Shown one piece after another: positions 33,240 through 51,424 of a stretch of DNA of 64,000 nt (the first letter of the stretch is position 1; each line of letters starts with the position of its first letter). This DNA is from Ilex aquifolium. Lineage: Eukaryota > Streptophyta > Magnoliopsida > Aquifoliales > Aquifoliaceae. Location: positions 36,305,593 through 36,369,592 of the forward strand of contig OX637392.1 of the NCBI GenBank assembly GCA_951799425.1, given 5' to 3'. The notes beneath the pieces were generated by a model, which worked only from the letters and a program-made list of their open reading frames with translations, searched no databases and was not told where the DNA came from. The translations under genes were made by a program, and so were the position numbers.

Positions 33240-33730
33240 TTCTTCCCGCCTTAAAAGAATTTCGTCCCCGAAATTCACACACACATGTACATTCAACCAC
33301 ATGCATTATGCAACAGTCATATAATACTAAATGACTATAAGAATGTACCTCCATCATCGAATAAGAAAGAATAACTGGTACGTATAGTGTCCTCACGCTC
33401 CCATGTCGCCTCTTGCACACCTTAGTGCTGCCACAACACCTTCACTAGCTTCATGGTCTTACCTTGTAAAATCTGTTCTCAACTATCCATGATATGCACC
33501 GGTCCCTCCTCGAAGGTCCCATCCGCATCACAATCAACTCACCCCAATCCACCGCATGTGTCAGATCTGGAGTGTACTTCCAAAGCATGGAGACATGAAA
33601 TACCATGTGACCACCCGATAGATTTGGCGATAACGCCAACTGGTAAGCAACTACGCCAACCCTCTCAAGTACCTTGAAGGGTTAGATATACCTCGGCGAG
33701 AGCTTTCTCCGCTTGCTAAACCTGACCACT
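33240..33730 (-). pseudogene. Tekay integrase C-terminus and chromodomain remnant
   Basis: The minus-strand peptides ALSPNLSGGHMVFHVSMLWK, DLTHAVDWGEL and CISWIVENRFYKVRP match the end of chromovirus integrase leading into the chromodomain. The rest of integrase lies beyond the nested Athila element, from 47593. Stops are present on both sides. Confidence 0.75.
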
Positions 33731-35000
33731 TGACTTGATCCGAAATGTGTACACCCAAGTGCAGGCGGTCAAGTTGTAGTAATAATCTGGTTTGAGTCCA
33801 GAGTCGAATCCTCAGGGAACTATGGTTGGTGTTCTTTGAAGTAAATAGTGAGAAAGACTTGTAATTGGAAATATTATGATTTTGAAGTTGTGGGAAGTTT
33901 TGGATAGAATGTAAGATTCTTTCCAATGGGTATTTTGCTAGACAAAATATAAGATGATTAAATGTAACAAGCACTCTTTGGTTCGGGAATCAGAATATGT
34001 AGTTGATTGTCCGGTGCATTATGTTTGTGCTTTATAACTCAATTAACTCCCGTGTCAACGGCAAATTAATCGGAAGATAGGAATGAAGTGCAATAATTGT
34101 GGACATTGAAAGTTTGTCATGAAGAGTTAGTTAGGGTACTTGCCTTGAATCAATGGATCTTTCCATGTAGGAGTCATCCATTTATCATAGAAAGATCCGT
34201 TGATTATACAAAGTACCTTTACTTTGCTAGGTGCATTCAATCACCCAAAAATCAAGTGGAGTATAGAACATTTAAGCATAAAGGTGATACACAAACATAA
34301 TGTCCGGATTAATCTTTTACATATCTATCATCCCTTCCCAAAGAGTGAATGAGGACTACTCACCCTTCATAGCTATGGTAAAGCTAGAATGATGAATGGT
34401 ACTCATCCCCAAAAGGTGTTACAAAGTAAAATGCTCAAGCACTAGAAGTGAAATGCTTTAAAGTAAAATAGCTAAACAAGGAGCCGATCTTCGACAAAGA
34501 ATGAGTGAATCACGTTCCACCCTTCACGGCTTTGGTAAAGCTCTAGAAAAGTGGAAGAGTTTCACTCCTCTAAGGGGAAGAAGGAAGCTCCAACAATGGA
34601 AGTAAAAGAAAACAATACTTAAATTAAAAGAAAGCAATAAATACTTGGTGTTTAATCCACAACCAAGAGATGATAATACATAAAAGAAAACAACAACTTC
34701 TTGGTGTTTAATCCACAACCAAGATATAATAAAAACATAAAAGAAAACAATAACTTCTTGGTGTTTAATTCACAACCAAGATCTAATAAAAAGAAAACAA
34801 CAACTTCTTGGTGTTTAATTCACAACCAAGATCTAATAAAAAGAAAACAATAACTCAAGAAAGTAAATAAAGCAATAATACTTGAAAGATGATTCAAGAA
34901 AAAGATTCAAGACCTTTGGAGTGTTTTCCACTAGGAAGAAATGTTCTTTACAAGAAAAATGAAACAAGAGAAGGATGCCCATTACAAGCCCCCAAGGGGG

Positions 35001-35010
35001 GTATTTATAG
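35001..35010 (-). promoter_or_regulatory. TATA box of the Athila 3' LTR
   Basis: On the minus strand it reads ctataaatac, about 455 bp into the LTR and directly downstream of the 42-bp repeats. The same box is in the 5' LTR at 47125-47134, where it would drive the element. Confidence 0.65.
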
Positions 35011-35020
35011 GCATCCAAAT

Positions 35021-35200
35021 TACAAATATCCTAAAAGATATTTATCCTAAAATATATTTAATTACAAATATCCTAAAAGATATTTATCCTAAAAGATATT
35101 TAATTACAAATATCCTAAAAGATATTTATCCTAAAAGATATTTAATTACAAATATCCTAAAAGATATTTATCCTAAAAGATATTTAATTACAAATATCAA
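35021..35200 (-). repeat. Four 42-bp tandem repeats with evening-element-like motifs
   Basis: The unit ttacaaatatcctaaaagat continues atttatcctaaaagatattt and aa. On the minus strand each unit carries AAATATCT twice (seven exact, one mutated) with adjacent GGATAA words. AAATATCT is the core of the plant evening element bound by CCA1/LHY/RVE factors, and GATAA is an I-box. The array is just upstream of the TATA box, the position of an enhancer. Confidence 0.8.
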
Positions 35201-35463
35201 GAAGATCTTGATTTACACTTTGATCTCCCTTTGTTTTGAGCTTTAATAATTTACACCCTATACTTTGATAAGTTGCTCTCCATGCTTTGATAATTGGCTC
35301 CCGTCGTTTTGACGCATAAAAACCTGAAAAGAACAACATTCAATGCATTATCCTTAATTCACACATTAACCCTAATTAGATTTATTTTGACTAGTTTAAC
35401 TTTATTTAATTACACAATTGACCTTTTAATTTAATTACATTTTGCATTAATTAGGGTTAATCA

Positions 35464-35480
35464 CACCCCCCAACCTAAAC
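35464..35480 (-). other. Polypurine tract of the Athila element
   Basis: On the minus strand ttaggttggggggtg precedes the 3' LTR. A similar aggttggggggtgag occurs internally at about 39703-39718, after ggggacaatgttcagtct. Confidence 0.75.
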
Positions 35481-37354
35481 ATTACTAGTCCCTAGTAATA
35501 AATAACAGCATAACAAAATCACTTTCGTAGATAACACGATTGCATTTAGCATATGCAATAAGCCGTTGAACCCCTAGGTGATTCCTAGTGGACGAGTTTT
35601 GTCTCGTGAAGGTTTTCAGTGAAGCTACCTACAAACTCCATTTGAAAAAAATGTGTATATGCATTAGCACCATGATAGCTGAGACGCCGAAATTTTTTTT
35701 TTTTTTTTTTTTTTTTTAGTAAAATAAAACACTTCTCTGTCATTGGTACGTAATATATGCAAAAATAAACACTTGTTATATTGGTATTTGAAATTCCCTA
35801 TGTAGTAAGAATGATCATTCTAGCAACAAGAATTGTTATATAACAAACACTCCACTTTACTACCTTCCATGGATAGCTTCGATTTCACAAACCTCTCGTA
35901 GAATGCTCTCAGCAAAAATTCACTCCGATTATAGTGACTTGTCTCTCACGGGGCATGTGATCAGAAGGTGGCCAATCGAAAAATCACATGCACAATTAGG
36001 AAGGAAGTGAAGTTTACGGAAACAAACTAATCATGTTTGGCATAATCTCATGAAAGAATATTGATGCAATTTAAAGAAATACTATTTACCATACCCCAAT
36101 TTTGATTAACAACACACACATGTAACAGACTTGAGATCAATTAGGGCTTTTCATAGGTTGTAGCGTGGCCAGAGGTCAGTGGCTAATGAAATGACGTCAG
36201 AGGTTTTCAAAAGCTATCTTTTCATTCTGTAATGTAGCACACTTCTTTCTAGCTTTTCGACATTTTGCCCAGAAATGATTTCTTTTTTTTTTTTTTTTTC
36301 ATTTGTTCCCATTGATTCTCCTTATCATCGAAAAGTAATCTCCACAGTTTTCCCATTTCTTTGCATTTCTGTGTCATATTGATTAATAAGAGTGTGCAAG
36401 AAAATTAGATAGCAATGGTGTGTCCAGTATGTTTTCTTGTGGCTTGGTAAATATTTGGGTTTATCAAAGAAGAAATCATACATTGAGGGCTCAAACATGG
36501 CTGACTAGGGAAATAATTTTGCAGAAAAAATGGCTAAGGCTCAATATCAAATCAAAGATGGCCTAAAATCCTTTCTCAAGTATGTGAACATGTATGTGTC
36601 GTATGAACAGATTTCTTGGGGATATGTCAACAGATTACCTTAGTTGCGTCAATCAAAGCAAATTTAATGAGATTATTCAAAAATAGAGAATGAAAGACCT
36701 TACTTGAATAAATGTTAATTATCTCTCAAAAGTATGGTAAGGCTCAAAACTTACCATGGTATTCTTTATCATCCCTACTGGTAATGTCAGGTTTTTCATG
36801 GAATGTCGGTTATATACCGATTCTATTTTTGAGTCTGGTCATTCTGTACCTTAAGAATAACAAATAGCAATATACATTTGACATTTAAGCATAGAGAAAA
36901 TACCATTTTTCAAAGAAGTGAGTTTTTTTTTTTTTTTTTTTTTTAAAAAAAGAAGAAATAAAATTCAAAATTATAAACATACTCATTTATCTATGAAAAT
37001 TGAAAGAAGACTAGATGCACCAATTAAACTTGAAAAACTATGACGTCTCAGGATAAGTCCCTACCCACACTACAGGTTGGCATTTTAGGACATTCCTTAC
37101 TCAGCCCACATACTCATTTATCTATGAAAATTGAAAGAAGATAAAATGCACAAATTGAACTTGGAAATTTATGGCGTCTCAGGATCAAATCCCTACCTAC
37201 ACTGTTAGTTGGTAGTTCGGGACGTTCCTTACTCGGCCCATATTTTTATTTCAACAACCAGACTTTGTACAAAAATATTTTACAAAAGAGTTCAAACCCT
37301 TAACCTTCATTCCAAAACATATTTTTCCACAGCTTTGTCTTTAATAGTCAAAAT
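35481..37354 (-). other. Non-coding 3' region of the Athila element
   Basis: No open frame of note. It holds long T runs on the plus strand (A runs on the element's sense strand) at about 35691-35717, 36283-36299 and 36926-36943. It also holds a 131-bp tandem duplication (36978-37108 and 37109-37239), each copy ending in ccttactcagccca-like sequence that resembles part of the Cys-rich protein gene just upstream in the element. Confidence 0.6.
36978..37239. repeat. 131-bp tandem repeat, two copies
   Basis: Both copies begin catactcatttatctatgaa and contain gcgtctcaggat, or a close variant, and ccttactc(a/g)gccca. The end resembles the segment of the Cys-rich protein gene that encodes GLSKDYPDTP, so it may be a decayed third copy. 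Confidence 0.7.
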
Positions 37355-37780
37355 CTAATCCGAGTCATTGCTTGGATCTATGTCATTATCAGTGACCCTT
37401 CCAACTTCTTGTCGCACATAACTTGTAAGTCCTGGACTGGCATAAGATGGCGTGTCAGGATAATCCTTACTCAGCCCATACACTATCCAGTTTAATCGAT
37501 CGGTTGCACGACCCGAAATTGGTTCAGAACACTGATTATGTTTTTTCATATGAAATATCCTGCCACAATGGTAACAAGCACCCAGTCGTTTGGAACGACG
37601 ATGTTTAGCAAAATTGCTTCTGCCACACAATGGTTGTTGTTGTTTCTCTCGGATCTCAATTTTTCTCACATCCCTTGCTTTTCTCATTATCACAGCATGC
37701 ACATCAGATGGGAAAATGCGTAGAACTCCTAGACTAAACCAAAAAAGTTTAGGATCCATGCTTGCTAAGACTAAAGACAT
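37355..37780 (-). CDS. Cys-rich basic protein 2 (CRP2), viral NABP-like architecture
   Basis: 141 codons from ATG 37780-37778. The order is a hydrophobic N-terminus (LFWFSLGVL, residues 12-20), then FPSDVH, then a basic helix (MRKARDVRKIEIREK). After LCGRS (51-55) comes an Arg/Lys-rich stretch and a finger with C69, C72, H77 and C84 (C-x2-C-x4-H-x6-C). Next are the conserved block SEPISGRATDRLNWIV, the block GLSKDYPDTP and an acidic tail. It is a paralogue of CRP1, about two-thirds identical by eye. The layout (Gly-Arg-Ser, a basic run, then a C-x2-C finger) recalls the cysteine-rich nucleic-acid-binding proteins of carla-like plant viruses, which suppress RNA silencing. It is not a Gag knuckle, whose last spacing is four. 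The open frame and conservation argue for selection; the function is inferred. Confidence 0.62.
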   Translation of the reverse strand: MSLVLASMDPKLFWFSLGVLRIFPSDVHAVIMRKARDVRKIEIREKQQQPLCGRSNFAKHRRSKRLGACYHCGRIFHMKKHNQCSEPISGRATDRLNWIVYGLSKDYPDTPSYASPGLTSYVRQEVGRVTDNDIDPSNDSD

Positions 37781-38318
37781 TCTATCTGGTTCTTTAACGT
37801 CTGCCAGTCACAAAGACAGTTGAAGCTGCATCCGATGTGATCATGAAATACAGGTACAAATACTAAAAAAAACGCGATCCAGAAAAAATAAATTTTTTTT
37901 TTTTTTTTTTTTTTTCAGATCTAAAACTAAAATTACAAATACGAAACTAGAGAAAATATATCAAAATACAAGCGGAAGGAAGAAGATTTAGGATGAAACA
38001 AACAAATTAACGAAGAAGGAATAAACCCAGAATACATAGGATTGAGGAGGATATTTTGGCAAATTATCAGATCTTACTGTAACAGCAATTACAACATAGT
38101 CATTGGAGGGCATAGCAAATTCACAAGGAATCTTATAAAGACAAATAGCCATGAGAATCACAAGCTGTAGATATCAAATTTCAAATATATATATAAATGA
38201 AATTACAAACAAGCAATACTTACAACACTAGCACTAGTGGGCTAGTGGAGATAAGGTTGTAAGGTACAGATCTGTTCATCTGCCGAAACCTACAAACAAA
38301 ATACAACAATTACTCAAC

Positions 38319-38450
38319 TCAAGGAATATCTGGGTTTCTCTGGAAACTCCTCATCCTAAGTGTGAGAACACAAAGAGCACCCAGGTACACATACAAACAT
38401 ATAAGACAAATTATTAAACAAAAGACTGGATCGTCGGCGTATATGGTCAT
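38319..38450 (-). CDS. Membrane micropeptide 2 (43 residues)
   Basis: ATG 38450-38448 to TGA 38321-38319. The peptide starts MTIYADDP, has a hydrophobic span of about 22 residues (VFCLIICLICLYVYLGALCV) and ends in a basic tail with RNPDIP. It aligns with micropeptide 1 over its whole length (shared DDP before the span, ICLY within it, NPD-x-P at the end). The DNA is too diverged for chance retention of a short open frame to be the simplest explanation. It lies 538 bases upstream of CRP2 on the same strand, the same order as in cassette 1. A single-span membrane peptide is predicted; its role is unknown. Confidence 0.5.
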   Translation of the reverse strand: MTIYADDPVFCLIICLICLYVYLGALCVLTLRMRSFQRNPDIP

Positions 38451-38459
38451 GGATTTACA

Positions 38460-38621
38460 GGGGGTGAGTTGTTTTTACAGAGAACAGAAAGAACGACGAC
38501 GAAGAAGAAGAGAAGAAAAAGAAAGAGAAGAAGAGAAGGGAAAGATAAAAGGGGGGAACCAACACCGGTGATGGTGGAAGAAAAATAAAAAGGTGGAAGG
38601 CCTAATAAAGGCATTCCTCAG

Positions 38622-38654
<33 letters not shown>

Positions 38655-38780
38655 TGTCGGCAGGAGCTGGCAGGCAGAAGAAAAGAAAAGAAAAAAAAGA
38701 AGAAGAAAGGCAGTGGGAGGCCCCCCCCCCCTTTTTTTTTCTACCTTTACTTTCGGCAGTGTCGGCAGGCGCAATAATAG
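38460..38780 (-). other. Upstream region of cassette 2, with pyrimidine tract and homopolymers
   Basis: On the sense (minus) strand there is a C/T-rich stretch (complement of 38490-38550), an A run (T28 on plus at about 38625-38652) and C9/T9 runs at about 38720-38740. The sequence gcctaataaaggcattcc at about 38599-38616 matches gccttataaaggcagtcc at the end of pol, so the duplicated unit began at the pol stop codon. Confidence 0.55.
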
Positions 38781-39077
38781 CAGCAGGCGCAATAATGGTG
38801 CATAGTAATAAAAATGAGTAGGATAAGAGAACACCTCGCACTTGAGCTTTGACCCATGCACCGATATCTGAAACTAGGAACAACAAAATTATACAACAAA
38901 AGAAAGTGACATGCATTAAAAATAACATTAATAAATAAAAGCAACTATACACTATTGTAGAAGGATTTTAGCAAAAACGTTCAAACGTGTTGTAACGTTC
39001 GAACGTCGAATCAAAAATTTTTACAGACTCGGACCTTCAGCTTTCATTCCCAACCTCAGTACACTTTTCCACAGAGT

Positions 39078-39488
39078 TCAATCTGATTCCCCCTCCGTAT
39101 CTGTGTAAAATGGACAACCAGTAACTCTCCCAACTTCCTCTCTCACAAATCGGTTAAGCACAGTACCGGAATAGCATGGCGTATCAGGGTAATCCTTACT
39201 CAGCCCATTCACTATCCAGTTTAATCGATCGGTTGCGCGACCGGAAATTGGTTCAGAACATTTGTTGTATCTTTTCTCATGAAAGTATCTGCCACACTGT
39301 TTACAGGCACCAAGTCGTGTAGCACGACGACGTTTAGAATAACTGCTTCGGCCACAGAGGGGTTTCGCTTGTTTTTCTTTGATTTCAGCCTTCCTTACTA
39401 ATCTTGCTTTTCTCATGATCATGGTATGTACATCAGATGGAAAAGTACGTAGGACTCCTAGACTAAACCAAAAAAGATTTACATCCAT
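39078..39488 (-). CDS. Cys-rich basic protein 1 (CRP1), viral NABP-like architecture
   Basis: 136 codons from ATG 39488-39486. This start matches the internal Met-9 of CRP2 (MD..LFWFSLGVLR). The ATG used by CRP2 is GTG here, with the frame closed just upstream. Features: LFWFSLGVL (residues 5-13), FPSDVH (16-21), a basic helix (MRKARLVRKAEIKEK), CGRS (45-48), KRRR (52-55), and a finger C62, C65, H70, C77. SEPISGRATDRLNWIV, GLSKDYPDTP and an acidic C-terminus follow. The last spacing of six differs from Gag knuckles. Resemblance to carla-like virus cysteine-rich nucleic-acid-binding proteins is by motif order only. If real, it could bind RNA or small RNAs and protect the element from silencing. 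Confidence 0.62.
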   Translation of the reverse strand: MDVNLFWFSLGVLRTFPSDVHTMIMRKARLVRKAEIKEKQAKPLCGRSSYSKRRRATRLGACKQCGRYFHEKRYNKCSEPISGRATDRLNWIVNGLSKDYPDTPCYSGTVLNRFVREEVGRVTGCPFYTDTEGESD

Positions 39489-39828
39489 GATTGCTACTTT
39501 ATAACCCACTATCTGGTTCTTTTACGTCTTCCAGTCACAAAGACGATCAAAACTGACCCACATATATTATCATTAATACAAGGTACATAATCTGAACAGA
39601 TACAACAATAAAAACAAAAAAATTTACAGAAAATTTTACGGGTTCAACCTGCGCAGATCAACTACTGTAAACTGCAGATCAACTACTGTAAACTGTAGAT
39701 CTCACCCCCCAACCTAGACTGAACATTGTCCCCAATGTTTCGAGTTTTTCGGTTTGTAGAGCTTGAATACGCAGTTAACTGTGGAGATCTGTTCAATCGC
39801 CGATGACCTATACCAAAAAAAACAGAGA

Positions 39829-39975
39829 TTAAGCATCTTTGGGGTGGTCTGGGTTTTCATTGGGACAAAAACCCTTGATCATCAGTGCGGCCCGAAGAAG
39901 AACAGCCATAAGTAAATAATACAAACAAATGTAGATCATGAGAAGGAGGATAGGGTCATCGAAAAATGCAGACAT
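39829..39975 (-). CDS. Membrane micropeptide 1 (48 residues)
   Basis: ATG 39975-39973 to stop at 39831-39829. The peptide begins MSAFFDDP, followed by a strongly hydrophobic span (ILLLMIYICLYYLLMAVLL) and a polar tail ending NENPDHPKDA. The frame is open further upstream through a Phe/Ser-rich stretch that merely translates the pyrimidine tract, so the short start is preferred because it aligns with micropeptide 2. It lies about 150 bases after the gag-pol stop and 340 bases before CRP1, all on the same strand. The predicted product is a small one-pass membrane protein with no family that I can name with confidence. Confidence 0.5.
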   Translation of the reverse strand: MSAFFDDPILLLMIYICLYYLLMAVLLRAALMIKGFCPNENPDHPKDA

Positions 39976-40019
39976 GGTATTGTTATGGGTTGGATCGTGG
40001 TACAGAAGACCAGATGCAG

Positions 40020-40137
40020 TGGAGAAGAAGAAGAAAAGAGAAGAAAAAGAAGAAGAAAAAGAAAAGAAAAGAGTAAAGGCGATGGGGAAAAGAAAAAGGA
40101 AAAAAAAAAAAAACGATGGGAGCCTTATAAAGGCAGT
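40020..40137 (-). promoter_or_regulatory. Candidate internal promoter and pyrimidine-rich leader for cassette 1
   Basis: On the minus strand ctttataagg overlaps the gag-pol stop codon (40127-40125) and is followed by about 90 bases of almost pure C/T up to about 40020, then micropeptide 1. A TATA-like box plus a CT-rich leader would suit a separate transcript for the accessory genes. The duplicated counterpart before cassette 2 has tttattagg. Confidence 0.3.
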
Positions 40138-43100
40138 CCATCGTGTCGGGTGTCTGATTGACCCGACCCTTTTTTGTGTCGGCAAGCGTAATCTCCGGAG
40201 TGATTTCCGGAGATACTTTCTGGATCCATAAAAAAAATGGTCTCCACATTTTGGACAAAATTCTCCACAAAGGGTTTTAATCGCTGACCATTGACGGTAA
40301 AAATGTTACCGTTTGATGGGTTCTCCACTTCCACTGCCCCATGTTCAAATACCTTTTTAACAATGTATGGTCCAGTCCATCTTGATTTCAACTTACCAGG
40401 AAATAGGCGAAGTCTCGAATTGAAAAGTAGAACCTTTTGATCAGGTTCAAAAGATTTTCGCACTATGTTCTTGTCATGAAAAATTTTCATCCTGGTTTTT
40501 GCAATCTTAGCATTTTCATATGCTTCATTTCTCAATTCCTCCAATTCATTAATTTGAAGCTTCCGTGACAGTCCAGCCTTGTCTAAGTCAAAATTCATTG
40601 CTTTAATAGCCCAGTATGCCCTATGTTCCAATTCCACAGGCAAGTGACATGGCTTTCCATAGACTAATCGATAGGGAGACATGCCCAAAATTGTTTTAAA
40701 AGCAGTTCGGTATGCCCAGAGCGCATCAGTTAGTCTTAATGACCAATCTTTGCGATCTGGGTTCACCGTTTTTTCCAAAATTAATTTGATCTCCCGATTA
40801 GCTAACTCAGCTTGTCCACTGGTCTGTGGATGATAAGGGGTTGCAATTTTGTGAAAAATCAAGTATTTTTTCATTAAATTCCAGAAGGAACGATTGCAAA
40901 AATGAGAACCCCCATCACTTATAATGGATTTTGGAATTCCAAACCGAGATAAAATATTTTCTTTTAAAAACTTGATCACTGTTTGATGATCATTATTTCG
41001 GCATGGAATTGCTTCAACCCATTTGGATACATAGTCTACGGCTACTAAAATGTATAGATAGCCAAAGGAGGGGGGAAATGGTCCCATAAAATCGATACCC
41101 CAACAGTCAAAAATTTCGATCACCAAAATTGGGTTTAAGGGCATCATGTTTCTTTTTGAAATGTTTCCCAACCTTTGACATCTATCGCAAGTTACGCAAA
41201 AAGCATGGACATCTTGGAAAAGTGTGGGCCAGTAAAATCCACACTGCAAGATTTTTGCAGCGGTTTTTCGAGATGAAAAATGACCACCGCATGCTTCTGA
41301 ATGACAAAATGTTATTACCTGTCTACTTTCCTGAGCGGGGATGCAACGTCTTATGATCTGATCCTTACAGTACTTGAATACGTAGGGATCTTCCCAAAAG
41401 AAATTGCGGACCTCCCTCAGAAACTTCTTTTTGTCCATGGGAGTGAAAAATGGAGGAAGTGTTCTGGTAGCAAGGAAATTAGCAATATCAGCGTACCATA
41501 GGGTCTCATCAATCCTGAATAGTTGTTCATCAGGGAATTTTTCATTGATTGGCAGTCCATCCTCATGAAATTCATAAGTTAATCTTGACAGATGATCTGC
41601 CACCACATTTTCCACACCCTTTTTGTCCTTAATGACTAAATCAAATTCTTGGAGCAAAAGGATCCATCTCAAGAGCCTTGGTTTGGCATCTTTTTTTGTA
41701 AGCAAAAATTTCAGTGCTGCATGGTCAGTAAATACAGTAACAGAAGAACCAACAAGATAAGATCGAAATTTTTCCAATGCAAATACTACAGCAAGTAATT
41801 CCTTTTCAGTTGTTGAGTAATTCATTTGGGCATCATTTAAAGTTTTACTTGCATAGTAAATCACATGTGGCTTCTTATCTTTTCTTTGTCCCAAAACAGC
41901 ACCTACATCATAGTCACTAGCATCACACATCAATTCAAAGGGTAGAGTCCAGTCAGGAGGTTGCATTATTGGGGCAGAAATTAACATGCCTTTGAGTTTG
42001 TCAAAGGATTTTTGGCACGCTTCATTCCAGTCGAAAATGACATCCTGACTCAAAAGATGACACATAGGTTTTGCTATGGTGCTGAAATCTTTTATGAACC
42101 TTCTGTAGAATCCTGCATGACCTAAGAATGATCGAACATCCTTCACAACCCTAGGAGCAGGAAGATTCCTTATCAAATCAATTTTTGCTTTATCAACTTT
42201 CATGCCTTCTGACGACACAATGTGACCCAAGACAATGCCTTGATTCACCATGAAATGACATTTCTCCCAGTTAAGCACCAGATTTGCCTCTTTGCATCTC
42301 ATCAAAACTTTTTCTAGGTTAGCTAGACACAAATCAAATGAGTCACCATATACCGAGAAATCATCCATGAAGATTTCCAAAAATTTTTCGACCATGTCAC
42401 TGAACAAGCTCAGCATACATCTTTGAAATGTTGCAGGAGCGTTACAAAGTCCGAATGGCATCCTTTTGAATGCAAAGGTGCCAAATGGACATGTGAATGT
42501 GGTCTTTTCTTGGTCATTCAGAGCTATCTCAATTTGATTGTATCCGGAATACCCATCCAGGAAACAGTAAAATTCATGGCCTGCTATTCTCTCGAGGACT
42601 TGGTCAAGGAAGGGAAGAGGAAAATGGTCTTTTCTAGTCACCAGATTGAGTTTTCGATAGTCAATGCACATTCGCCATCCTGTGACGACTCGTGTTGGCA
42701 CGAGTTCATTTGCATCATTTTTGACTACTGTGACTCCAGATTTCTTTGGTACAACTTGGGTTGGACTAACCCATTTGCTATCGGAGATAGGAAAAATTAT
42801 CCCTGCATCCAGGAGTTTGAGCACTTCCAGTCTCACAACCTCTTTCATGTGAGGATTCAATCGTCGCTGCATTTGACGAGAGGGTTTTGAGTCCTCTTCA
42901 AGGTATATGGCATGATTACAAATTAACGGGCTTATACCTTTCAAATCAGCGATGGTCCACCCAATGGTGCTTTTGTGACTTTTAAGAACTTCAATTAATT
43001 GAGCTTCTTGCAAGTCTGTGATTTTTGAAGAAATTACCACTGGGTAAGATTTATCCTCACCTAAAAATGCATACTTGAGATCAGATGGGAGCGGTTTCAG

Positions 43101-45737
43101 TTCAGGCTTTGGTGGCCTGTCACTTGAAGATAGTGGTTTTGTACCACTTGATGAAATTTCTTCAAATTTAGGAGCCCATGTCCCCACATTGAAGGTAGGG
43201 CACTCAATGGAGTTTTGTTCCAGAGAGTCAGATGAGTCAGATTTTGACAAAGTTGATTCACTAAGATCCTCACAGAATGAGTCATTCAGATGTGCTTGTA
43301 TCAATGACTCAATGGAATTTATTTCTCCTACCTCCTCGTACTCTCTTGGGTGTTTTGCAATGTCAAAGACGTTCATTTCGAGAGTCATATCCCCAAAAGT
43401 CAATTTCATAATACCATTCCTGCAATTGATTAGTGCATTGGAGGTTGCTAGAAAAGGTCGACCAAGAATGACAGGAATTGGAGTTTCTGAATGAAATTCT
43501 GGATGAGTATCTAGAACAATGAAGTCTACAGGGAAGACAAAATTATCCACTTGGACAAGTACATCTTCAACAATACCCCTAGGAATTTTTACAGATCTAT
43601 CTGCCAATTGGAGTGTGGTGCAAGTGGGTTTCAGTTCACCTAAACCCAACTGCTGGTAGACAGAGAAAGGAAGCAAGTTGACACTAGCTCCAAGGTCTAA
43701 CAATGCTTGCTCAATTTTGAAATTTCCAATGACACATGACACAGTGGGACACCCTGGATCTTCGCACTTTGAAGGGATTTTGTGTTGAAGTAGGGCACTG
43801 GCTTGCTCTGTGAGGAAGGCTCTTTTTTGAACATTTTGGCTTCTTTTGACTGTGCACAAGTCTTTTAGAAACTTGGCATAAGCTGGAACCTGTTGGATTG
43901 CATCCAGAAGTGGGATGTTGATTTTTACTTGCTTGAAAAGCTCGTAAATTTCAGACTGATTGTTTGCTTTCTGTATGCTCTTGAGTCTATGAGGGAAAGG
44001 AGCAGGAATAGAACACGAGGGTTCTTCTTCCCTTGATGGCTCTGGTTCTTGTTCAATCATGGGATCACAGTCATTTTTTTTTTCAAGTTCTGGCTCACTT
44101 AATGGGTTGGCTGGAATTGAGACTGGTTTTGGGTCTGGAATCAGCATGTTTCTGATGGACTTGTCAATCTTTTTGCCACTTCTCAATGTGGTGACAGTTT
44201 TGGCTTGGTCTTGTGGAGTTTCCATAGTTGATGGATTTCCCACCTGAAATTGGCCTTGTGGAGGCTTTGGTTGGGCAGGAAATTTTCCCTTCTCATGTGT
44301 GCTCATGGACTGGGTCAGCTTTTGAATGTGGCCTTTGAGATCCTCAAAAGATTGTGTGGTCTGGGCCTTGAAATCAATAAAAGCCTGAGTAGAACTATTG
44401 TTATAGCTCATTTGGGTTTGCATGAATTGATTCAATGTATCTTCAAGGCTCCTTTTGTGTGGTGGTTGATATGGAGGATATTGTGGAGGTACTTGAGGTG
44501 GATGTGGTGGCCCTTGTTGATGAGGATATTGTGGAGGTCCTTGAGGTGGTTGTTGTGGACCTTGTTGCTGATTCATGGGGGTTGGTTGTGTGTTTCTCCA
44601 ACTGAAATTTGGGTGGTTCCGCCACCCTGGATTGTATGTTTCAGAGTATGGGTTGGAGTAAGGCTTGTTGAAATTGGAAATGGCATTTGTTTGTTCCAAC
44701 AAAACTTCTTTGAATGCCGGTATGGTCGGGCATTCCCCAGTAGGATGCCCTGTTAGCGCACAAATCCCACACACTTGTTCTGTGGGAGGGACAACATCAA
44801 CTTGATGGATCTTTTTCATCTCTAAAGCTTCAAGCTTTCGAGACAAAGTGGACATTTTTGCTCTAAGATCATCATCTTCTCTCAAGACATACTTACCCCC
44901 TTGGAAAGTAGGTGGTTTGGCTTCTACAGTGGTAGGAGAGGCTGAGTCCCACATTTGAGAACTGTCAGATATGGTATCAAAAAAATTGAATGCCTCCTCC
45001 GGACTTTTTCCCATGAACTCTCCTTGAGCCATCATTTCGACAAACTGTCGTAACCTAGTGGGCAAGGAATCATAGAAAAAACCTGCCAAAGTCCAATTTT
45101 CAAAAGCATGGTGTGGACAAGATTGGAGAAGATCTTTGAATCTCTCCCAGCTTTGATAAAAAGTTTCCCCTTCTTTGACCGAAAAATTCATGATTTGTCT
45201 TTTGAGTGTATTAGTGCGGTGCAGAGGAAATAATTTTCTGAAAAATTCATTCTGTAGAGCCTGCCAATTAGGGATTGAAAGAGATTTTAAAGAATGTAAC
45301 CATTGTTTGGCTTTATCCCTCAAAGAGAAAGAAAACAATTTCATTTTTGTCAATTCAGAATTGTCTTGAAATGTTCCACACACTTCTTCGAAGTCTTTGA
45401 TATGCAGATACGGATTTTCTGCATCCAATCCATGAAACACGGGCAATAACTGCACTGTCCCCGGCTTTACAGTAAAGAGGGGAGCATTTTCAGGAAAAAT
45501 AAAACAAGAGGGGACACTATTCCTTGTGGGATGTAAGTAATCTCGCAATGTTCGAATGTTGGGTACTTCCCCCTCTCTCACATGATCTTCACCCTGCCTA
45601 TCAATATTTGCCATATTGAAGTTACAAGAATCGGCTTCTGATTTGGGTGAAGGTGGTTCAAGTTGATTTACAGACCCAGAAGATTCAGCAGGCAAATTTT
45701 GAAAGAGACGTTTGGTGTCAGTCATAAAAAAAAACAA
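40125..45737 (-). CDS. Athila-type Gag-Pol polyprotein, intact
   Basis: One uninterrupted frame of 1870 codons; the likely start is MTDTKRLF at 45725, four codons inside the longest frame. Domains by approximate residue: Gag 105-270 ([33 protein letters not shown]); zinc knuckle [14 protein letters not shown] about 320; Pro/Gln-rich linker 370-430; aspartic protease [13 protein letters not shown] about 680; reverse transcriptase with [24 protein letters not shown] and catalytic FMDDFSVYG about 1120; RNase [12 protein letters not shown] about 1335; integrase HHCC ([19 protein letters not shown]) about 1480-1530, [11 protein letters not shown] about 1545 and [10 protein letters not shown]. There is no chromodomain. 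It makes the capsid and enzymes for reverse transcription and integration. No stop or frameshift is seen, so it could be functional. Confidence 0.93.
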
Positions 45738-45826
45738 AATTATTCACAATAAGGCAAAAATATATACTAAAAGAGAGTTTTTTTTTTTTTTTTTTTTTCA
45801 CCTTTTTCTAAAAAGAGCACCTTTTA

Positions 45827-45848
45827 TGATTCCCCGGCAACGGCGCCA
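45827..45848 (-). other. Primer-binding site, tRNA-Asp type
   Basis: On the minus strand tggcgccgttgccggggaat follows the 5' LTR by six bases. Between it and gag-pol there is only a leader of about 90 bases with an A20-type run (45781-45799 as T on plus). Confidence 0.9.
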
Positions 45849-45854
45849 AAAACT

Positions 45855-47587
45855 TGACTTGATCCGAAATGTGTACACCCAAGTGCAGGCGGTCAAGTTG
45901 TAGTAATAATCTGGTTTGAGTCCAGAGTCGAATCCTCAGGGAACTATGGTTGGTGTTCTTTGAAGTAAATAGTGAGAAAGACTTGTAATTGGAAATATTA
46001 TGATTTTGAAGTTGTGGGAAGTTTTGGATAGAATGTAAGATTCTTTCCAATGGGTAATTTGCTAGACAAAATATAAGATGATTAAATGTAACAAGCACTC
46101 TTTGGTTCGGGAATCAGAATATGTAGTTGATTGTCCGGTGCATTATGTTTGTGCTTTATAACTCAATTAACTCCCGTGTCAACGGCAAATTAATCGGAAG
46201 ATAGGAATGAAGTGCAATAATTGTGGACATTGAAAGTTTGTCATGAAGAGTTAGTTAGGGTACTTGCCTTGAATCAATGGATCTTTCCATGTAGGAGTCA
46301 TCCATTTATCATAGAAAGATCCGTTGATTATACAAAGTACCTTTACTTTGCTAGGTGCATTCAATCACCCAAAAATCAAGTGGAGTATAGAACATTTAAG
46401 CATAAAGGTGATACACAAACATAATGTCCGGATTAATCTTTTACATATCTATCATCCCTTCCCAAAGAGTGAATGAGGACTACTCACCCTTCATAGCTAT
46501 GGTAAAGCTAGAATGATGAATGGTACTCATCCCCAAAAGGTGTTACAAAGTAAAATGCTCAAGCACTAGAAGTGAAATGCTTTAAAGTAAAATAGCTAAA
46601 CAAGGAGCCGATCTTCGACAAAGAATGAGTGAATCACGTTCCACCCTTCACGGCTTTGGTAAAGCTCTAGAAAAGTGGAAGAGTTTCACTCCTCTAAGGG
46701 GAAGAAGGAAGCTCCAACAATGGAAGTAAAAGAAAACAATACTTAAATTAAAAGAAAGCAATAAATACTTGGTGTTTAATCCACAACCAAGAGATGATAA
46801 TACATAAAAGAAAACAACAACTTCTTGGTGTTTAATCCACAACCAAGATATAATAAAAACATAAAAGAAAACAATAACTTCTTGGTGTTTAATTCACAAC
46901 CAAGATCTAATAAAAAGAAAACAACAACTTCTTGGTGTTTAATTCACAACCAAGATCTAATAAAAAGAAAACAATAACTCAAGAAAGTAAATAAAGCAAT
47001 AATACTTGAAAGATGATTCAAGAAAAAGATTCAAGACCTTTGGAGTGTTTTCCACTAGGAAGAAATGTTCTTTACAAGAAAAATGAAACAAGAGAAGGAT
47101 GCCCATTACAAGCCCCCAAGGGGGGTATTTATAGGCATCCAAATTACAAATATCCTAAAAGATATTTATCCTAAAATATATTTAATTACAAATATCCTAA
47201 AAGATATTTATCCTAAAAGATATTTAATTACAAATATCCTAAAAGATATTTATCCTAAAAGATATTTAATTACAAATATCCTAAAAGATATTTATCCTAA
47301 AAGATATTTAATTACAAATATCAAGAAGATCTTGATTTACACTTTGATCTCCCTTTGTTTTGAGCTTTAATAATTTACACCCTATACTTTGATAAGTTGC
47401 TCTCCATGCTTTGATAATTGGCTCCCGTCGTTTTGACGCATAAAAACCTGAAAAGAACAACATTCAATGCATTATCCTTAATTCACACATTAACCCTAAT
47501 TAGATTTATTTTGACTAGTTTAACTTTATTTAATTACACAATTGACCTTTTAATTTAATTACATTTTGCATTAATTAGGGTTAATCA
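45855..47587 (-). repeat. 5' LTR of the Athila element
   Basis: It is 1733 bp, offset by exactly 12,124 from the 3' LTR. The TATA box is at 47125-47134, the 42-bp repeats at 47145-47324 and the hairpin repeats at 46764-46974. This copy would promote transcription of the element. Confidence 0.92.
47145..47324 (-). promoter_or_regulatory. Evening-element-like repeat array of the 5' LTR
   Basis: This is the promoter copy of the array at 35021-35200: four 42-bp units giving seven AAATATCT and several GGATAA words on the minus strand, ending some 10-20 bases upstream of the TATA box. It could place the element under clock and light regulators. Confidence 0.55.
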
Positions 47588-47592
47588 CCACT

Positions 47593-50500
47593 CATCTCTT
47601 AGGCATCACATTCAAGAAGACGTGATCTCCAACCTCAAACTCCAGAGGTCTCCACCGTCTGTCAGCGTAGCTCTTCTGCCAGCTCTGAGCCGTGAGAAGA
47701 CGCTTCCGTATCATGTCCACATTCTCTGAGGTGTCTCTAACCAATTCCATACCCATAGAGGGTCTCTCTCTAACCTCTGTCCAACAAACCGAAGAATGAT
47801 AAGGCCTCCCATAAAGTGCCTCATAGGGTGACATCTGTATGTTCGCTTGATAACTATTGTTATAGGCGAACTTCACTAAGGGTAAATGCTCTTTCCAGTT
47901 ACCCTTGAGATCTAGGACGCATGCCTGTAGCATGTCCTCTAAAGTCTGGATGGTCCTCTCCAACTGACTGTCCGTCTGGGGATGAAAGGTTGTGCTTATC
48001 ATCAACCGTGTCCTCATGGCCTGCTGAAAACTCTCCAAAAAATGAGCCGTAAACCTGGGATTTTGATCCGATACTATAGATACGAGCATCCTATGCAATC
48101 GGACAATCTCCTGTATGTACAATCGGCAGAATTCCTCCAGTGTGAAGGTCATTCGAACGACCAAAAAATGCGTCAACTTCATAAGCCGATCCACTATCAC
48201 CTATACTGTGTCATATCCCCGCAATGTCTGTCGCAAGTGGGTCACAAAATTCACCATGACATGCTCCCACTTCCACTCAGCCACCTCCAAAGTCTGGAGC
48301 AACCCTGAGGGTCTCTAGTGCTTAGTCTTGACCTGCTAATACGTGAGAGTGAGACATCGACTAATGAAATCTCCAACGTGCCTCTTCATCCCGTTCCAAT
48401 AGTACTGGCGACAAAGATCATGGTACATCTTCGTGCCACCAGGATGTACAGCAAAACGGGAGCAATGAAACTCCCTAAGGATCTCCTCCCTCAGATCCGT
48501 AGACTGGGAAAATACAACTCTTCTCCTAAACCGAAGACTACCATCCGGGTGAATAGCCTAACCCTCGTCATCTGTACTCAACTATACTCGGTCCTTGATA
48601 GAAAATATCTCCGTGTCCTGTCTCTGTTACTCGATCACTCTACTCAGTAGGGAAGACATAGCCACCAAAGTGCCCTGAGTCTGACTCCTGTAGTGTAGCC
48701 TCAACTGCCCCACAATCTTGACCATCTGCCATTCCCGAGAAGCCACACTAGCCAAGACTCCCCGTGACTTTCGACTGAATGCATCAACCACCACATTTTC
48801 CTGACCAGCCTGGTAATGCAAAGTGAGGTCATAGTCCTCTAAATACTCCATCCACCTGCGTTGTCTCAAGTTGATGTCCTGCTATGTGAAGATGTACTTC
48901 AGACTCTTGTGGGCAAAAAATACCTCGAACTGCTCTCCGTATAAATAGTGGCGCCAAGCCTTCAAGGCAAAGACAATGGCCGCCAACTCCATATCATACG
49001 TAGGGTAATTCTGCTCGTAGTTCTTTAATTTTTGGAAATCATAAGCCACCACTATCCCGGACTGCATCAAAACACACCCAAGTCCGTCCTTCGAGGCATC
49101 ATAATACACTGTGTACCTCTGTCCCCTTTCCAAAACTATCCAAATCGGAGTTGAAATAAGCCTCTTCTTCAACTCTTGGAATGCACTCTAACACGAGTCA
49201 TCCCACTGAAACTTGACCTCCTTCCGGGTCAATCTCGTCATAGGTGCAGCTAGTTGGGAGAAGTTCTCAATGAACCTCTTGTAGTACCCCACCGATCACA
49301 AGAAACTGCGTATCTTGAAGATTGACTTTAGTTTCTCCCAACTCATAACTGCCTAGACCTTCTCCGGGTCAACTAACACACCCGAAGCCGACACCAAGTG
49401 TCCCAAAAACTTCACTTCTGTAAGCCAAAATTCACATTTGCTAAACTTGGCATACAACTGATGGTCCCTCAAGGTCTGGAGAACAACCCTCAAGTGACCC
49501 TCGTGCTCCTCCTCAGACTGGGAGTAGATCAGAATGTCATTAACAAAGACCACGAAAAATTGATCTAGGCAGGGTTGGAACAACCTATTTATGAGATCCA
49601 TGAATGCCGCCGGGGCATTCGTTAATCCAAAAGGCATAACTGTGAACTCCAAATGCCCATACCGCGTCCTAAACGCCGTCTTAGGGACATCTATCTCCCT
49701 AATCCCTAACTAATGGTATCCTGTGCGTAGATCTATCTTGGAGTAGACCCGCGTCCCTCTCAGTTGGTAAAAAAGTCATCAATCCTCGCAAAAGGGTATC
49801 TATTCTTAATAGTAACCCTATTCAACTGCCGGTAGTCTATGCATAGCCAAAGGGTCTTGTCCTTCTTCTTGGCAAATAACACCGGAGCACCCCAAGGTGA
49901 GGTGCTCGGTTTAATGAACCCCTTGTCCATCAATTCTTACAATTAGACCTTGAGTTCCTGCAACTCTGCAGGTGCCATTCTATGGAGAGTCATAGAAATG
50001 AGAGATGTACCAAGGTGCAACTCAATAGTGAAGTCTACATCCCTATGTGGAGGTAATCCCGGTAGTTCATCCGAAAAAAATATCCTCATACTCACAAACC
50101 ACCTAAGGTAGACCCAACTCTTATCTCGCCTCGTCCTCCAAGGTAAGGCTTGCTAGCCAACCCATCAGCTACCCGTGGCAACGAGAGTCATACACTACTT
50201 GGGGTAGAGCATCATGCTTCTCCCCCTGAAATTTGAAACAAACACCATCCGGTGTGTAAGCGATGACCCTCTTCCGATCACAATCAATGACGACTCAGTG
50301 TGCCACTAACCAATCCATCCCAAGGATGACATCAAACTCTGACATGTCCATGACCCGAAGGTCCACGATGAGTAGAATCCCTAAGATCTCTAGCTCACAA
50401 CCCCGATATATCCGATCAATCCTAACCCTAATTCCTAGGGAAGAACTCACATGCAATGGCTTTTCCAAGGTCTCAGTCTCTACGCCCATGTCCTTCACAT

Positions 50501-50803
50501 ATGATGCCGAAATGAATGAATAAGATGCACCAGAGTCAAATAATAACCTTGCCCATAAGCGAGAGAGTAGAAATGTATCCTAAATAACTGATTGATCCAC
50601 TGGCTCAGTCTGAGGTGTGATGGCGTAGACACGCCCCTAGGTCTTCGAAGTCCCGGCCTGTGAGCCCTGTCCTCGGCCTCAACCCATGCCTTGGCGCATC
50701 TAGCCTGATTGTGGGATCCCCGCACGTGAAGTAGTAAGGGCCTATGTAGCACCCTAGAACTGATACTGGCTTCCCTGGCCCGTGGTGGGGTGGGGAGGAA
50801 CAA
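47593..50803 (-). pseudogene. Tekay pol: protease, reverse transcriptase, RNase H, integrase
   Basis: On the minus strand, from right to left: protease region (EFDVILGMDWLVAH, about 50340-50295); reverse transcriptase with [20 protein letters not shown] and [13 protein letters not shown], where the catalytic Asp-Asp is Asn-Asp (AAT at 49541-49539); RNase H ([34 protein letters not shown], about 49110-48960, then NVVVDAFSRK); integrase core (MIVDRLMKLTHFLV, SIVSDQNPRFTAHFLESF, QLERTIQTLEDMLQ, about 48200-47850). Many stops and frameshifts separate the pieces. The frame ends at the Athila insertion and resumes at 33730. It is inactive. Confidence 0.82.
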
Positions 50804-50855
50804 AGTATGTCTGTGGCTTTCCCACTAATGATTGGGACTGAGATGCCTCATAACC

Positions 50856-51424
50856 CTAGGATCCATGTCTCTGAGGACAATCTTGCTTCATGTGGCCCCG
50901 TTGGTGGCAATGGAAGCATGCCCGTGAGCCTGCCTGGCTAGAAGCCCTAAAGTGTCTCCCGCCTTTGAGGGATTGACCTTGGCCTTGGCCTTGATTGTCA
51001 CGGCCTTGTCCCTGATACCCTTGTTGAGCAGAAGTCATCTACTTCTTTCCCAAACTAGTAGAAGATGATTGACCCACCTTCTTCTTGTCCTTAGCACTCG
51101 CTTCCCGAATGCTCCGTGAGTCATCAAAATCTCTCTTAATGGCCATAGCTGTCTCGACAATCGAGTCCAAGTCTTGTAGGCGGTGGCCCACAATTTTACC
51201 TCGGATGGATAACTTTAACCCATCCTCGAACCTCCTCACTTTGGCTATATCTGTGGCCACATAATCATCGGTAAAACAGGCTAACTCGGTGAACTTAGCC
51301 ATGTACTCCGTCACCGTCATGTTCCCTTGTTTCAAGTCCAAGAACTCCCTGGCTTTAGCTTGACGATCAACCGATGGGAAGTACTTGTCCATGAAGACCT
51401 TCTGAAACTCTCCCCATGTCATTG
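50856..51424 (-). pseudogene. Tekay gag, C-terminal part with zinc knuckle
   Basis: MTWGEFQKVFMDKYFP, MTVTEYMAKFTELACFTDDY and RRFEDGLKLSIRGKI are the second half of the chromovirus Gag domain (51422-51039). After a stop comes a Gly/Gln-rich linker and a complete zinc knuckle CFHCHQRGHMKQDC (about 50921-50880). The N-terminal half lies beyond the nested LTR block at 55941-56308. Confidence 0.82.

What the first reader, a model, noticed from the sequence alone, without database searches (positions are those of the whole stretch)
37355..39975. Duplicated two-gene accessory cassette (membrane micropeptide plus Cys-rich protein) in an intact Athila-type element
Downstream of an uninterrupted gag-pol, on the same strand, the order is micropeptide 1, CRP1, micropeptide 2, CRP2. 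Both members of each pair stay open and align with each other although the intervening DNA has diverged. The homology of flanking motifs (gtctttgtgactgg-like before each CRP, the pyrimidine tract before each micropeptide, and a match to the pol stop region) shows duplication of one unit. This slot usually holds an env-like gene in Athila elements. I know of no described family with this cassette.
Basis: partly seen in the sequence, partly recalled or inferred. Interest (0 to 1): 0.9.

Follow-up and report, generated by a model that had tools for sequence, protein, structure and literature searches.

The report
Retrotransposon carrying virus silencing-suppressor genes
A very abundant plant-type retrotransposon carries two copies of a small gene that belongs to the family plant RNA viruses use to block RNA silencing, each paired with a tiny membrane peptide, which suggests a jumping gene that borrowed a virus's shield against its host.

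Summary
A complete 13.9-kb Ty3-type element (33731-47587, minus strand; LTRs 1 difference in 1733; TSD CCACT) carries, after an open gag-pol, micropeptide 1, CRP_A, micropeptide 2, CRP_B. Profile searches reach Grapevine virus A p10 and Poplar mosaic virus; the best structure matches of a modest model are flexivirus homologues too. It is no oddity of one copy: a 33-base pre-CRP pattern occurs 2423 times in this 800-Mb genome (reversed control 0); of 20 places sampled, 20 have a CRP behind it, 15 fully open. One-unit and two-unit families exist, with exchange between them. Among open CRPs, dN < dS in 128 of 128 pairs with dS > 0.2 (medians 0.16, 0.26). The micropeptide is probably coding (weaker evidence). 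Best reading: a flexivirus-type suppressor gene captured by an Athila-type lineage, duplicated and kept by selection, probably to blunt siRNA defence. Homology and selection are shown; suppressor activity, expression route and direction of transfer are inferred. Ten literature searches found no description.

The parts
33731..35463 (-). 3' LTR, 1733 bp, TG...CA
   Evidence: one mismatch with the 5' LTR
45855..47587 (-). 5' LTR, 1733 bp
33726..33730 (.). target-site duplication CCACT (one side)
47588..47592 (.). target-site duplication CCACT (other side)
45831..45848 (-). primer-binding site TGGCGCCGTTGCCGGGGA, 6 bases after the LTR; called tRNA-Asp type from recall; a tRNA-Asp primer site is described for Diaspora/Calypso in PMC1142308
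35464..35475 (-). polypurine tract GGTTGGGGGGTG next to the 3' LTR
40125..45725 (-). gag-pol, one open frame: Retrotrans_gag, Asp_protease_2, RVT_1, RT_RNaseH, Integrase_H2C2, rve
40122..40134 (-). unit 1 TATA-like GCCTTTATAAGGC, overlapping the pol stop codon
   Evidence: such a box in 5 of 5 units compared
39829..39975 (-). micropeptide 1 (48 aa, one hydrophobic stretch, best 19-aa Kyte-Doolittle mean 2.75)
39808..39822 (-). unit 1 3'-splice-site-like TTTTTTTTGGTATAG|G, just after the micropeptide stop (putative)
   Evidence: such a site in 5 of 5 units compared
39704..39733 (-). internal polypurine-tract-like GGGGACAATGTTCAGTCTAGGTTGGGGGGT
   Evidence: 4 of 5 units (absent from unit 2 of the window)
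39511..39544 (-). 34-base motif before CRP_A
39078..39488 (-). CRP_A, 136 aa, flexivirus NABP / silencing-suppressor family
   Evidence: PF05515 41.1 bits (cut-off 23), PF01623 26.3-26.4 bits (cut-off 20.9)
38600..38612 (-). unit 2 TATA-like GCCTTTATTAGGC
38319..38450 (-). micropeptide 2 (43 aa, best 19-aa Kyte-Doolittle mean 2.82)
38290..38301 (-). unit 2 3'-splice-site-like TTTTGTTTGTAG|G (putative)
37784..37817 (-). 34-base motif before CRP_B; the overlapping 33-base pattern at 37782-37814 occurs 2423 times in the genome with up to 2 mismatches
37355..37759 (-). CRP_B, 134 aa (in-frame ATG 7 codons upstream at 37780), flexivirus NABP / silencing-suppressor family
   Evidence: PF05515 E 1.5e-12, 48.4 bits; PF01623 24.2 bits

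Best explanation
An Athila-type Ty3 retrotransposon lineage carries a gene of the flexivirus cysteine-rich nucleic-acid-binding protein family, most simply captured from a betaflexivirus-like RNA by template switching during reverse transcription. It sits in the post-pol slot as a unit with a one-helix membrane micropeptide, was duplicated as that unit, and has been kept by purifying selection through the family's spread. Proposed work: each CRP is made from a subgenomic RNA (spliced to an acceptor before the CRP, or started at the TATA-like box of each unit), binds RNA through its Arg-rich stretch and zinc finger, and blunts siRNA-based silencing of the element's transcripts, so that new copies can be made before the host shuts them off. 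The micropeptide probably sits in the ER or another membrane as a separate accessory. Shown here: homology, unit duplication, copy number, open frames, dN<dS of the CRPs. Inferred: suppressor activity, expression route, virus-to-element direction, micropeptide role.
For: Pfam: both CRPs pass curated cut-offs of PF05515 and PF01623; in a 30-sequence set that includes 9 named viral rows, 28 of 30 match PF05515 and 20 of 30 PF01623. Profile searches: Grapevine virus A RNA-binding protein E 3e-7 (43% identity over 45% of the query) and Carrot vitivirus 1 (E 0.018, weak) from element-type CRPs alone; further vitiviruses and Poplar mosaic virus (E 3.5e-4) with a mixed profile that already held two vitivirus rows. 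Shared GRSxxAKRRRA / C.CG / H / C / ISG / DRL / G / ETP layout. Foldseek of a 30-row model (mean pLDDT 62.6): of 53 matches at E<=10, ranks 1-25 are plant flexivirus proteins plus one closterovirus protein (CTV p23) and three unnamed rows; top is Glyptostrobus pensilis prunevirus 'RNA silencing suppressor', 33% identity, E 4.6e-4, the only one below 0.001. Selection: dN<dS in 128 of 128 CRP pairs with dS>0.2, median ratio 0.16 (24 pairs) and 0.26 (104 pairs); all 10 pairs of five CRPs Z -2.6 to -4.2. Spread: pre-CRP pattern 1202+1221 times, reversed control 0; of 20 sampled places 20 have a CRP behind it, 15 fully open, and in all 15 the first ATG after the pattern is the CRP start or in frame with it. 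Homologue function in print: GVA p10 suppresses silencing and has Arg-rich and zinc-finger parts (PMC10819895 passages); CYVCV, PVM, CVB and SPCFV CRPs suppress silencing (PMC12172455 abstract and discussion).
Against: No activity, transcript or protein was measured. Viral CRPs have other roles (pathogenicity, cell death, NLS and zinc finger described as features of transcription factors), one tested mandarivirus CRP suppressed silencing only weakly and only with ssRNA, and an RNA-binding protein could instead serve as an RNA chaperone for the element. Within the young window family pN/pS is 0.68-0.72 (CRP_A 19 copies S6 N14; CRP_B 19 copies S5 N13), and among CRP pairs with dS<=0.2 the median ratio is 0.42-0.46 with values up to 1.94 (40 pairs): single copies drift after insertion. 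The tree was rooted at its midpoint, so transfer direction is untested, and the carlavirus row and P0035 are on very long branches. TM-scores of the first 12 structure matches are low, 0.28-0.35 by query. Splice sites and TATA boxes are pattern matches only; I saw no splice donor shared by all units, and my donor scan used an approximate matrix.
Confidence: 0.6

Rival explanations
1. The CRP is a viral-derived or shared nucleic-acid-binding protein used by the element as an RNA chaperone, packaging factor or transcription regulator of its own RNA, not as a silencing suppressor.
For: Strongly basic protein with Arg-rich motif and C-x2-C-H-C-type finger; the gag-pol pieces gave no zinc-knuckle match at E 0.001, so a separate nucleic-acid binder could fill that role; mandarivirus/allexivirus CRPs carry an NLS and a zinc finger described as features of transcription factors.
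Against: Several studied relatives are silencing suppressors; pol-less derivatives keep gag and CRP, which fits either role.
Confidence: 0.25
2. Passive hitch-hiking: an endogenised virus fragment that happened to lie in a successful element and has no function.
For: pN/pS 0.68-0.72 among young copies; 5 of 20 sampled CRP places are broken; micropeptides broken or unmatched in some copies.
Against: 128 of 128 diverged pairs with dN<dS (open copies only); both paralogues are kept in several families, with matching protein groups from other sources, though database proteins are open by definition.
Confidence: 0.07
3. The transfer went the other way, or both ways: flexivirus CRPs derive from a plant retrotransposon or host gene.
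For: CRP-bearing elements are diverse (several families here, plus 40-44% identical groups from other sources); vitivirus CRPs lack the first 45 or so residues of the element CRPs, while prunevirus and trichovirus ones are of similar length to them.
Against: The family occurs in many flexivirus genera in the structure matches, while the section I read of an angiosperm-wide screen of extra domains (PMC9289625) does not name this domain among the nine it names of 15, so the element side looks restricted; the root was not tested.
Confidence: 0.1
4. The micropeptide frames are not genes but by-products of a conserved promoter/leader region upstream of each CRP.
For: Micropeptide dN/dS in 10 pairs is 0.17-0.78 with Z -0.6 to -1.5, none significant alone; pol-less derivatives L065 and L067 have lost most of the micropeptide but keep the CRP; no Pfam family above its cut-off for three versions.
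Against: In-frame protein similarity beats 5000 shuffles at p<=0.05 in 10 of 10 pairs (protein-guided alignment); with 36 ungapped codons frame 0 has p<0.05 in 6 of 10 pairs and p<=0.10 in 9 of 10, the other five frames p<0.05 in 7 of 50, and only frame 0 is free of stops in every pair; a hydrophobic core in all five versions compared. The pairs are not independent.
Confidence: 0.3

Closest known systems
Flexivirus CRP/NABP (PF05515 Viral_NABP, PF01623 Carla_C4): GVA p10, prunevirus 'RNA silencing suppressor', trichovirus 15K, carlavirus and allexivirus CRPs
   Same: Pfam membership, Arg-rich GRSxxAKRRR motif followed by a C-C-H-C finger, ISG..DRL..G..ETP tail, similar size (130 and 139 aa in two pruneviruses versus 134-136 aa), last gene before the 3' end
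   Different: Carried by an LTR retrotransposon, present twice, each behind a membrane micropeptide; no other viral gene was recognised in the window element
Athila/Calypso/Diaspora lineage of plant Ty3 elements (PMC1142308 passages)
   Same: tRNA-Asp-type primer site a few bases after the LTR, single gag-pol frame, extra genes between pol and 3' LTR as in Athila and Calypso
   Different: No env-like ORF and no ATHILA ORF1 domain match; CRP/micropeptide units instead
Orchid Ty3 elements with an m6A demethylase (2-ODD/AlkB-type) domain (PMC9289625, section 12 and passages)
   Same: Extra gene in a plant Ty3 element, of a domain class also found in flexiviruses
   Different: Different protein, one gene; the section read does not name the NABP domain
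Insect R1 LINEs with tobamovirus-like SF1 helicase (PMC4686597, start of abstract in listing; PMC6338049 passages)
   Same: Retroelement with a plant-virus-like protein proposed to suppress silencing
   Different: Non-LTR element in insects, domain fused to ORF2, not a dedicated suppressor
Nodavirus-like element captured by a retrotransposon in Bursaphelenchus (PMC5177903, outline and abstract)
   Same: RNA-virus sequence inside a retrotransposon, expressed
   Different: Nematode; not a plant suppressor family duplicated and amplified
Sunflower Athila 14 aORF(-), 70 aa with one TM helix (PMC11728184 passages)
   Same: Small one-helix accessory ORF in an Athila element
   Different: Antisense there, sense here; no CRP mentioned in the passages seen

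Membership tests
Flexivirus CRP/NABP (PF05515/PF01623) | Whole-protein score above Pfam's curated cut-off | tested here: met
   CRP_B 48.4 and CRP_A 41.1 bits against 23 (PF05515); 24.2 and 26.3 against 20.9 (PF01623)
Flexivirus CRP/NABP (PF05515/PF01623) | Arg-rich stretch followed by zinc-finger-type cysteines/histidine | tested here: met
   GRSSYSKRRR then C62 C65 H70 C77 (CRP_A numbering); metal binding not tested
Flexivirus CRP/NABP (PF05515/PF01623) | Closer to viral members than to cellular zinc-ribbon proteins | tested here: met
   PDB sequence search with CRP_B gave no match better than E 0.078, ribosomal zinc-ribbon proteins for the most part. Nesting inside a given viral genus not resolved
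Flexivirus CRP/NABP (PF05515/PF01623) | RNA-silencing suppression and nucleic-acid binding | not testable with these tools
   needs an assay
Athila/Calypso clade of Ty3 elements | Ty3 order PR-RT-RH-INT, no second RNase H or chromodomain hit | tested here: met
   three pieces of gag-pol at E 0.001 (the two RNase H models listed overlap one place)
Athila/Calypso clade of Ty3 elements | tRNA-Asp primer site a few bases past the LTR | tested here: met
   against the description in PMC1142308; the tRNA sequence itself is recalled
Athila/Calypso clade of Ty3 elements | RT places in the Athila clade | not tested
   no named RT set was at hand
Athila/Calypso clade of Ty3 elements | env-like ORF or ATHILA ORF1-type domain after pol | tested here: not met
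   no ATHILA-type Pfam match in the gag-pol pieces, CRPs or micropeptides; no frame longer than 150 aa after pol on the element strand in 36400-40124, none of 60 aa or more listed in 35500-37354
Retroviral env-like gene | Long glycoprotein-like ORF with signal peptide and TM | tested here: not met
   micropeptides are 43-48 aa with one hydrophobic stretch
Triple-gene-block protein 3 or other known viral membrane peptide | Pfam match | tested here: not met
   micropeptide 1 no family; micropeptide 2 and the L062 version only hits far below cut-off (best DUF3481, 16.3 bits against 28.5)

The most novel reading that the evidence does not exclude
A plant retrotransposon lineage armed itself with an RNA-virus silencing suppressor, split it into two specialised copies, each with a membrane partner, and owes its thousands of copies to them; CRP genes may even pass back and forth between such elements and flexiviruses, making the element a natural chimera of retrotransposon and RNA virus.
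Probability: 0.35. Interest if true: 0.95.

Novelty: new variant of a known kind. Interest (0 to 1): 0.87.

Why it matters
How plant retrotransposons get past siRNA silencing is an open question, and the jobs of their post-pol genes are mostly unknown. Here the accessory gene belongs to a family with tested silencing suppressors among its viral members, in an element with near-identical LTRs and over two thousand sites in one genome. It gives a directly testable case of a transposon using a virus-type counter-defence, points to gene flow between RNA viruses and LTR elements, and offers a natural set of one-unit, two-unit, pol-less and tandem-array forms to compare.

Tried and rejected
Structure of CRP_B from 12 rows: pLDDT 43.5, not used. 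Related loci in viral contigs with CRP_B alone and with alignment A1: none of 19 and none of 31 pattern matches confirmed. PDB sequence search with CRP_B: 13 look-alikes, mostly ribosomal zinc-ribbon proteins, best E 0.078. The pol-less copies L065 and L067 first looked like reverse-transcribed spliced RNA (gag joined to the micropeptide end); the junction is a short shared stretch without GT-AG, so I read it as a deletion. An intron inside each unit: the 3'-splice-like sites are shared but I saw no donor shared by all units. The CRP type P0017 was sought in this genome: best hits 41-46%, in the same element CRPs as far as the places can be compared. TGBp3-like nature of the micropeptides: no Pfam family above cut-off.

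Literature: ten searches listed no report of a flexivirus NABP in a retrotransposon; the library holds only open-licence PMC papers, I saw listings, abstracts, passages or single sections of the papers named, and supplements could not be read. PMC9289625 reports 15 extra domains in 121 angiosperms; the section I read names nine of them, so absence from its figure is not shown.

Full report
What is there. The window holds a complete Ty3-type LTR element on the minus strand, 33731-47587. Its LTRs (33731-35463 and 45855-47587, 1733 bp) differ at one position, the element is flanked by CCACT on both sides, a tRNA-Asp-type primer site follows the 5' LTR and a polypurine tract precedes the 3' LTR. 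Three pieces of the open gag-pol frame match Retrotrans_gag, Asp_protease_2, RVT_1, RT_RNaseH, Integrase_H2C2 and rve. Diaspora and Calypso, of the Athila lineage, have a tRNA-Asp primer site five bases beyond the LTR (PMC1142308 passages); here the gap is six. I made no RT tree, so 'Athila-type' rests on this and on the domain order. The host assembly is unnamed; that it is a plant is inferred from the kind of element.

What the CRPs are. Both CRPs score above Pfam's cut-offs for Viral_NABP and Carla_C4. A search of 5.8 billion proteins with CRP_B found 10 relatives of 13 candidates, 64-88% identical, from ENA or JGI contigs of unnamed organisms; a profile of 12 element-type CRPs then listed 27 proteins of 552 candidates at E<=10, among them Grapevine virus A RNA-binding protein at E 3e-7; a mixed profile, which already contained two vitivirus rows, listed 31 of 4988 candidates at E<=1, adding more vitiviruses and Poplar mosaic carlavirus at E 3.5e-4. 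The shared core is GRS..AKRRRA, C.CG, H, C, ISG..DRL..I/V..G, ETP. A 30-row AlphaFold model of CRP_A reached pLDDT 62.6, with 62 of 136 residues at 70-90; its first 25 of 53 Foldseek matches in the viral library are prunevirus, allexivirus, trichovirus, carlavirus, potexvirus/mandarivirus, vitivirus and other flexivirus CRPs, CTV p23 and three unnamed rows; only rank 1 is below E 0.001 and the TM-scores are low, so this is support from sequence-plus-structure letters rather than a firm fold match.

Not a single curiosity. Searching the host assembly (800 Mb, 103 contigs) with CRP_B gave 4093 first-look candidates, of which the best 150 were scored, all 99-100% identical and without stops. With the protein P0010, 150 of 4120 candidates were scored; 8 of 150 have a stop, and they fall into groups at about 90, 86, 80-81 and 78% identity. 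These lists are ranked by similarity and so favour open copies. A fairer sample: a 33-base pattern before CRP_B occurs 1202+1221 times with up to two mismatches, the reversed control 0 times. From the roughly 100 places listed (exact matches, chromosomes C1 and C2 only) I took about every fifth, 20 in all: a CRP follows in 20 of 20, and it is fully open (134-141 aa) in 15 of 20; the other five are frameshifted, stopped or lack the start.

Selection. Among 19 CRPs (15 open ones of that sample, two of the window, L059, L055) 171 pairs were compared: in all 128 pairs with dS above 0.2, dN is below dS; medians are 0.16 (24 pairs, dS 0.2-0.5) and 0.26 (104 pairs, dS 0.5-2). In 40 closer pairs the medians are 0.42-0.46, single values up to 1.94; the remaining three of the 171 pairs fell into no dS band. 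Only open copies were used, and the pairs are not independent. CRP_A against CRP_B: dS 0.73-0.76, dN 0.20-0.21, ratio 0.28. Young copies of the window family show the looser pattern expected after insertion: CRP_A S6 N14, CRP_B S5 N13, no stops in 19 copies each; micropeptide 1 S0 N5 in 18, micropeptide 2 S2 N2 in 19 (L010 was left out of all these counts, although its CRP_B is open and its CRP_A match has a stop). The micropeptide is less sure: ratios 0.17-0.78, no pair significant alone, yet in-frame similarity beats shuffles in 10 of 10 pairs, and in an ungapped test frame 0 reaches p<0.05 in 6 of 10 pairs against 7 of 50 in the other frames.

Modular history. Family I (30 loci, L029-L058) has the same order: micropeptide 1 matches full length in 27 of 30 and micropeptide 2 over 44-45 aa in 29 of 30. 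Its CRP_A (L055) is 104 of 136 identical to the window's, but the part of CRP_B read is identical to the window's (91 of 91 residues in L029, 52 of 52 in L055), which points to exchange between families. L060 has a CRP_A whose first half is nearer the window's (63 against 49 of 68) and second half nearer family I (66 against 58 of 68), and a CRP_B broken near its start. L059 has one unit with its own micropeptide and no second unit in the 3.0 kb read after it. L061, L062 and L064 show another micropeptide version before a CRP (CRP start broken in L062; micropeptide broken in L063), but these stretches are too short to exclude a second unit. In the tree, CRP_A groups with P0006-P0010 and P0012 (100/100), CRP_B sits with P0001-P0002 (82/81), and the 16-row element-type clade has 94/91, so the two copies parted before these families did. 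Derivatives without pol (L065, L067) keep an open CRP, and a tandem array with a period of 1518 bases (11 hits; L069) repeats the unit.

How it may be expressed and work. Five units compared (two of the window, L059, L062, L055 unit 2) all carry GCCTTTAT[A/T/G]AGGC, a 3'-splice-like TAG|G just after the micropeptide stop, and the 34-base motif; four of five carry a polypurine-like stretch. The motif contains CAG or AAG followed by a leader with no out-of-frame ATG before the CRP start in the 15 open copies, which would suit a splice acceptor there; this is inference. Several viral relatives suppress silencing, and I take that as the likeliest role, at about 0.6. The rivals are an RNA-chaperone or regulatory role, and, for the micropeptide, a by-product of a conserved leader.

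Known or new. CRP family: known. Retroelements with RNA-virus-like genes: known in insects and a nematode. Plant LTR elements with extra genes: known. Plant genomes with betaflexivirus remnants: a replicase-like piece in cucumber (PMC3136472 passages). A plant LTR element lineage that carries, duplicates and maintains a flexivirus-type suppressor gene with a membrane micropeptide: not found in my ten searches of open papers.

Noticed in passing
genome G000 C2:23935965-23951436 (L069 reads its start): Tandem array of the micropeptide-CRP unit with a period of 1518 bases, 11 CRP hits: a retrotransposon cassette turned into a satellite-like repeat.
   Followed up: partly
L065 and L067: Two separate copies in which gag runs directly into the last codons of the micropeptide and then an open CRP: pol-less derivatives that keep gag sequence and CRP.
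   Followed up: partly
proteins P0015-P0021, P0023-P0025, P0027: A second group of CRPs (MVHIDG... and MHVDGR... types, 40-44% identical) from unnamed contigs, with decayed-looking relatives, so perhaps also genomic or element-borne in other hosts; no near match in this genome.
   Followed up: partly
window 47592-51422: Frames that look by eye like pieces of another, degraded Ty3-type gag-pol on the same strand begin at the insertion point (no family search made); the element probably landed in an older retrotransposon.
   Followed up: no
window 36977-37185: Two 78-base direct-repeat copies, 131 bases apart, between CRP_B and the 3' LTR; similar MGRVRN... frames appear after the CRPs of L059 and L060.
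   Followed up: no
window 34626-35240 and 46750-47364: Short tandem repeats inside both LTRs (families D1 and D2).
   Followed up: no
window 40390-40400: The best-scoring donor-like sequence in the stretch scanned, CTG|GTAAGT at 40396, lies near the end of pol (approximate matrix).
   Followed up: no
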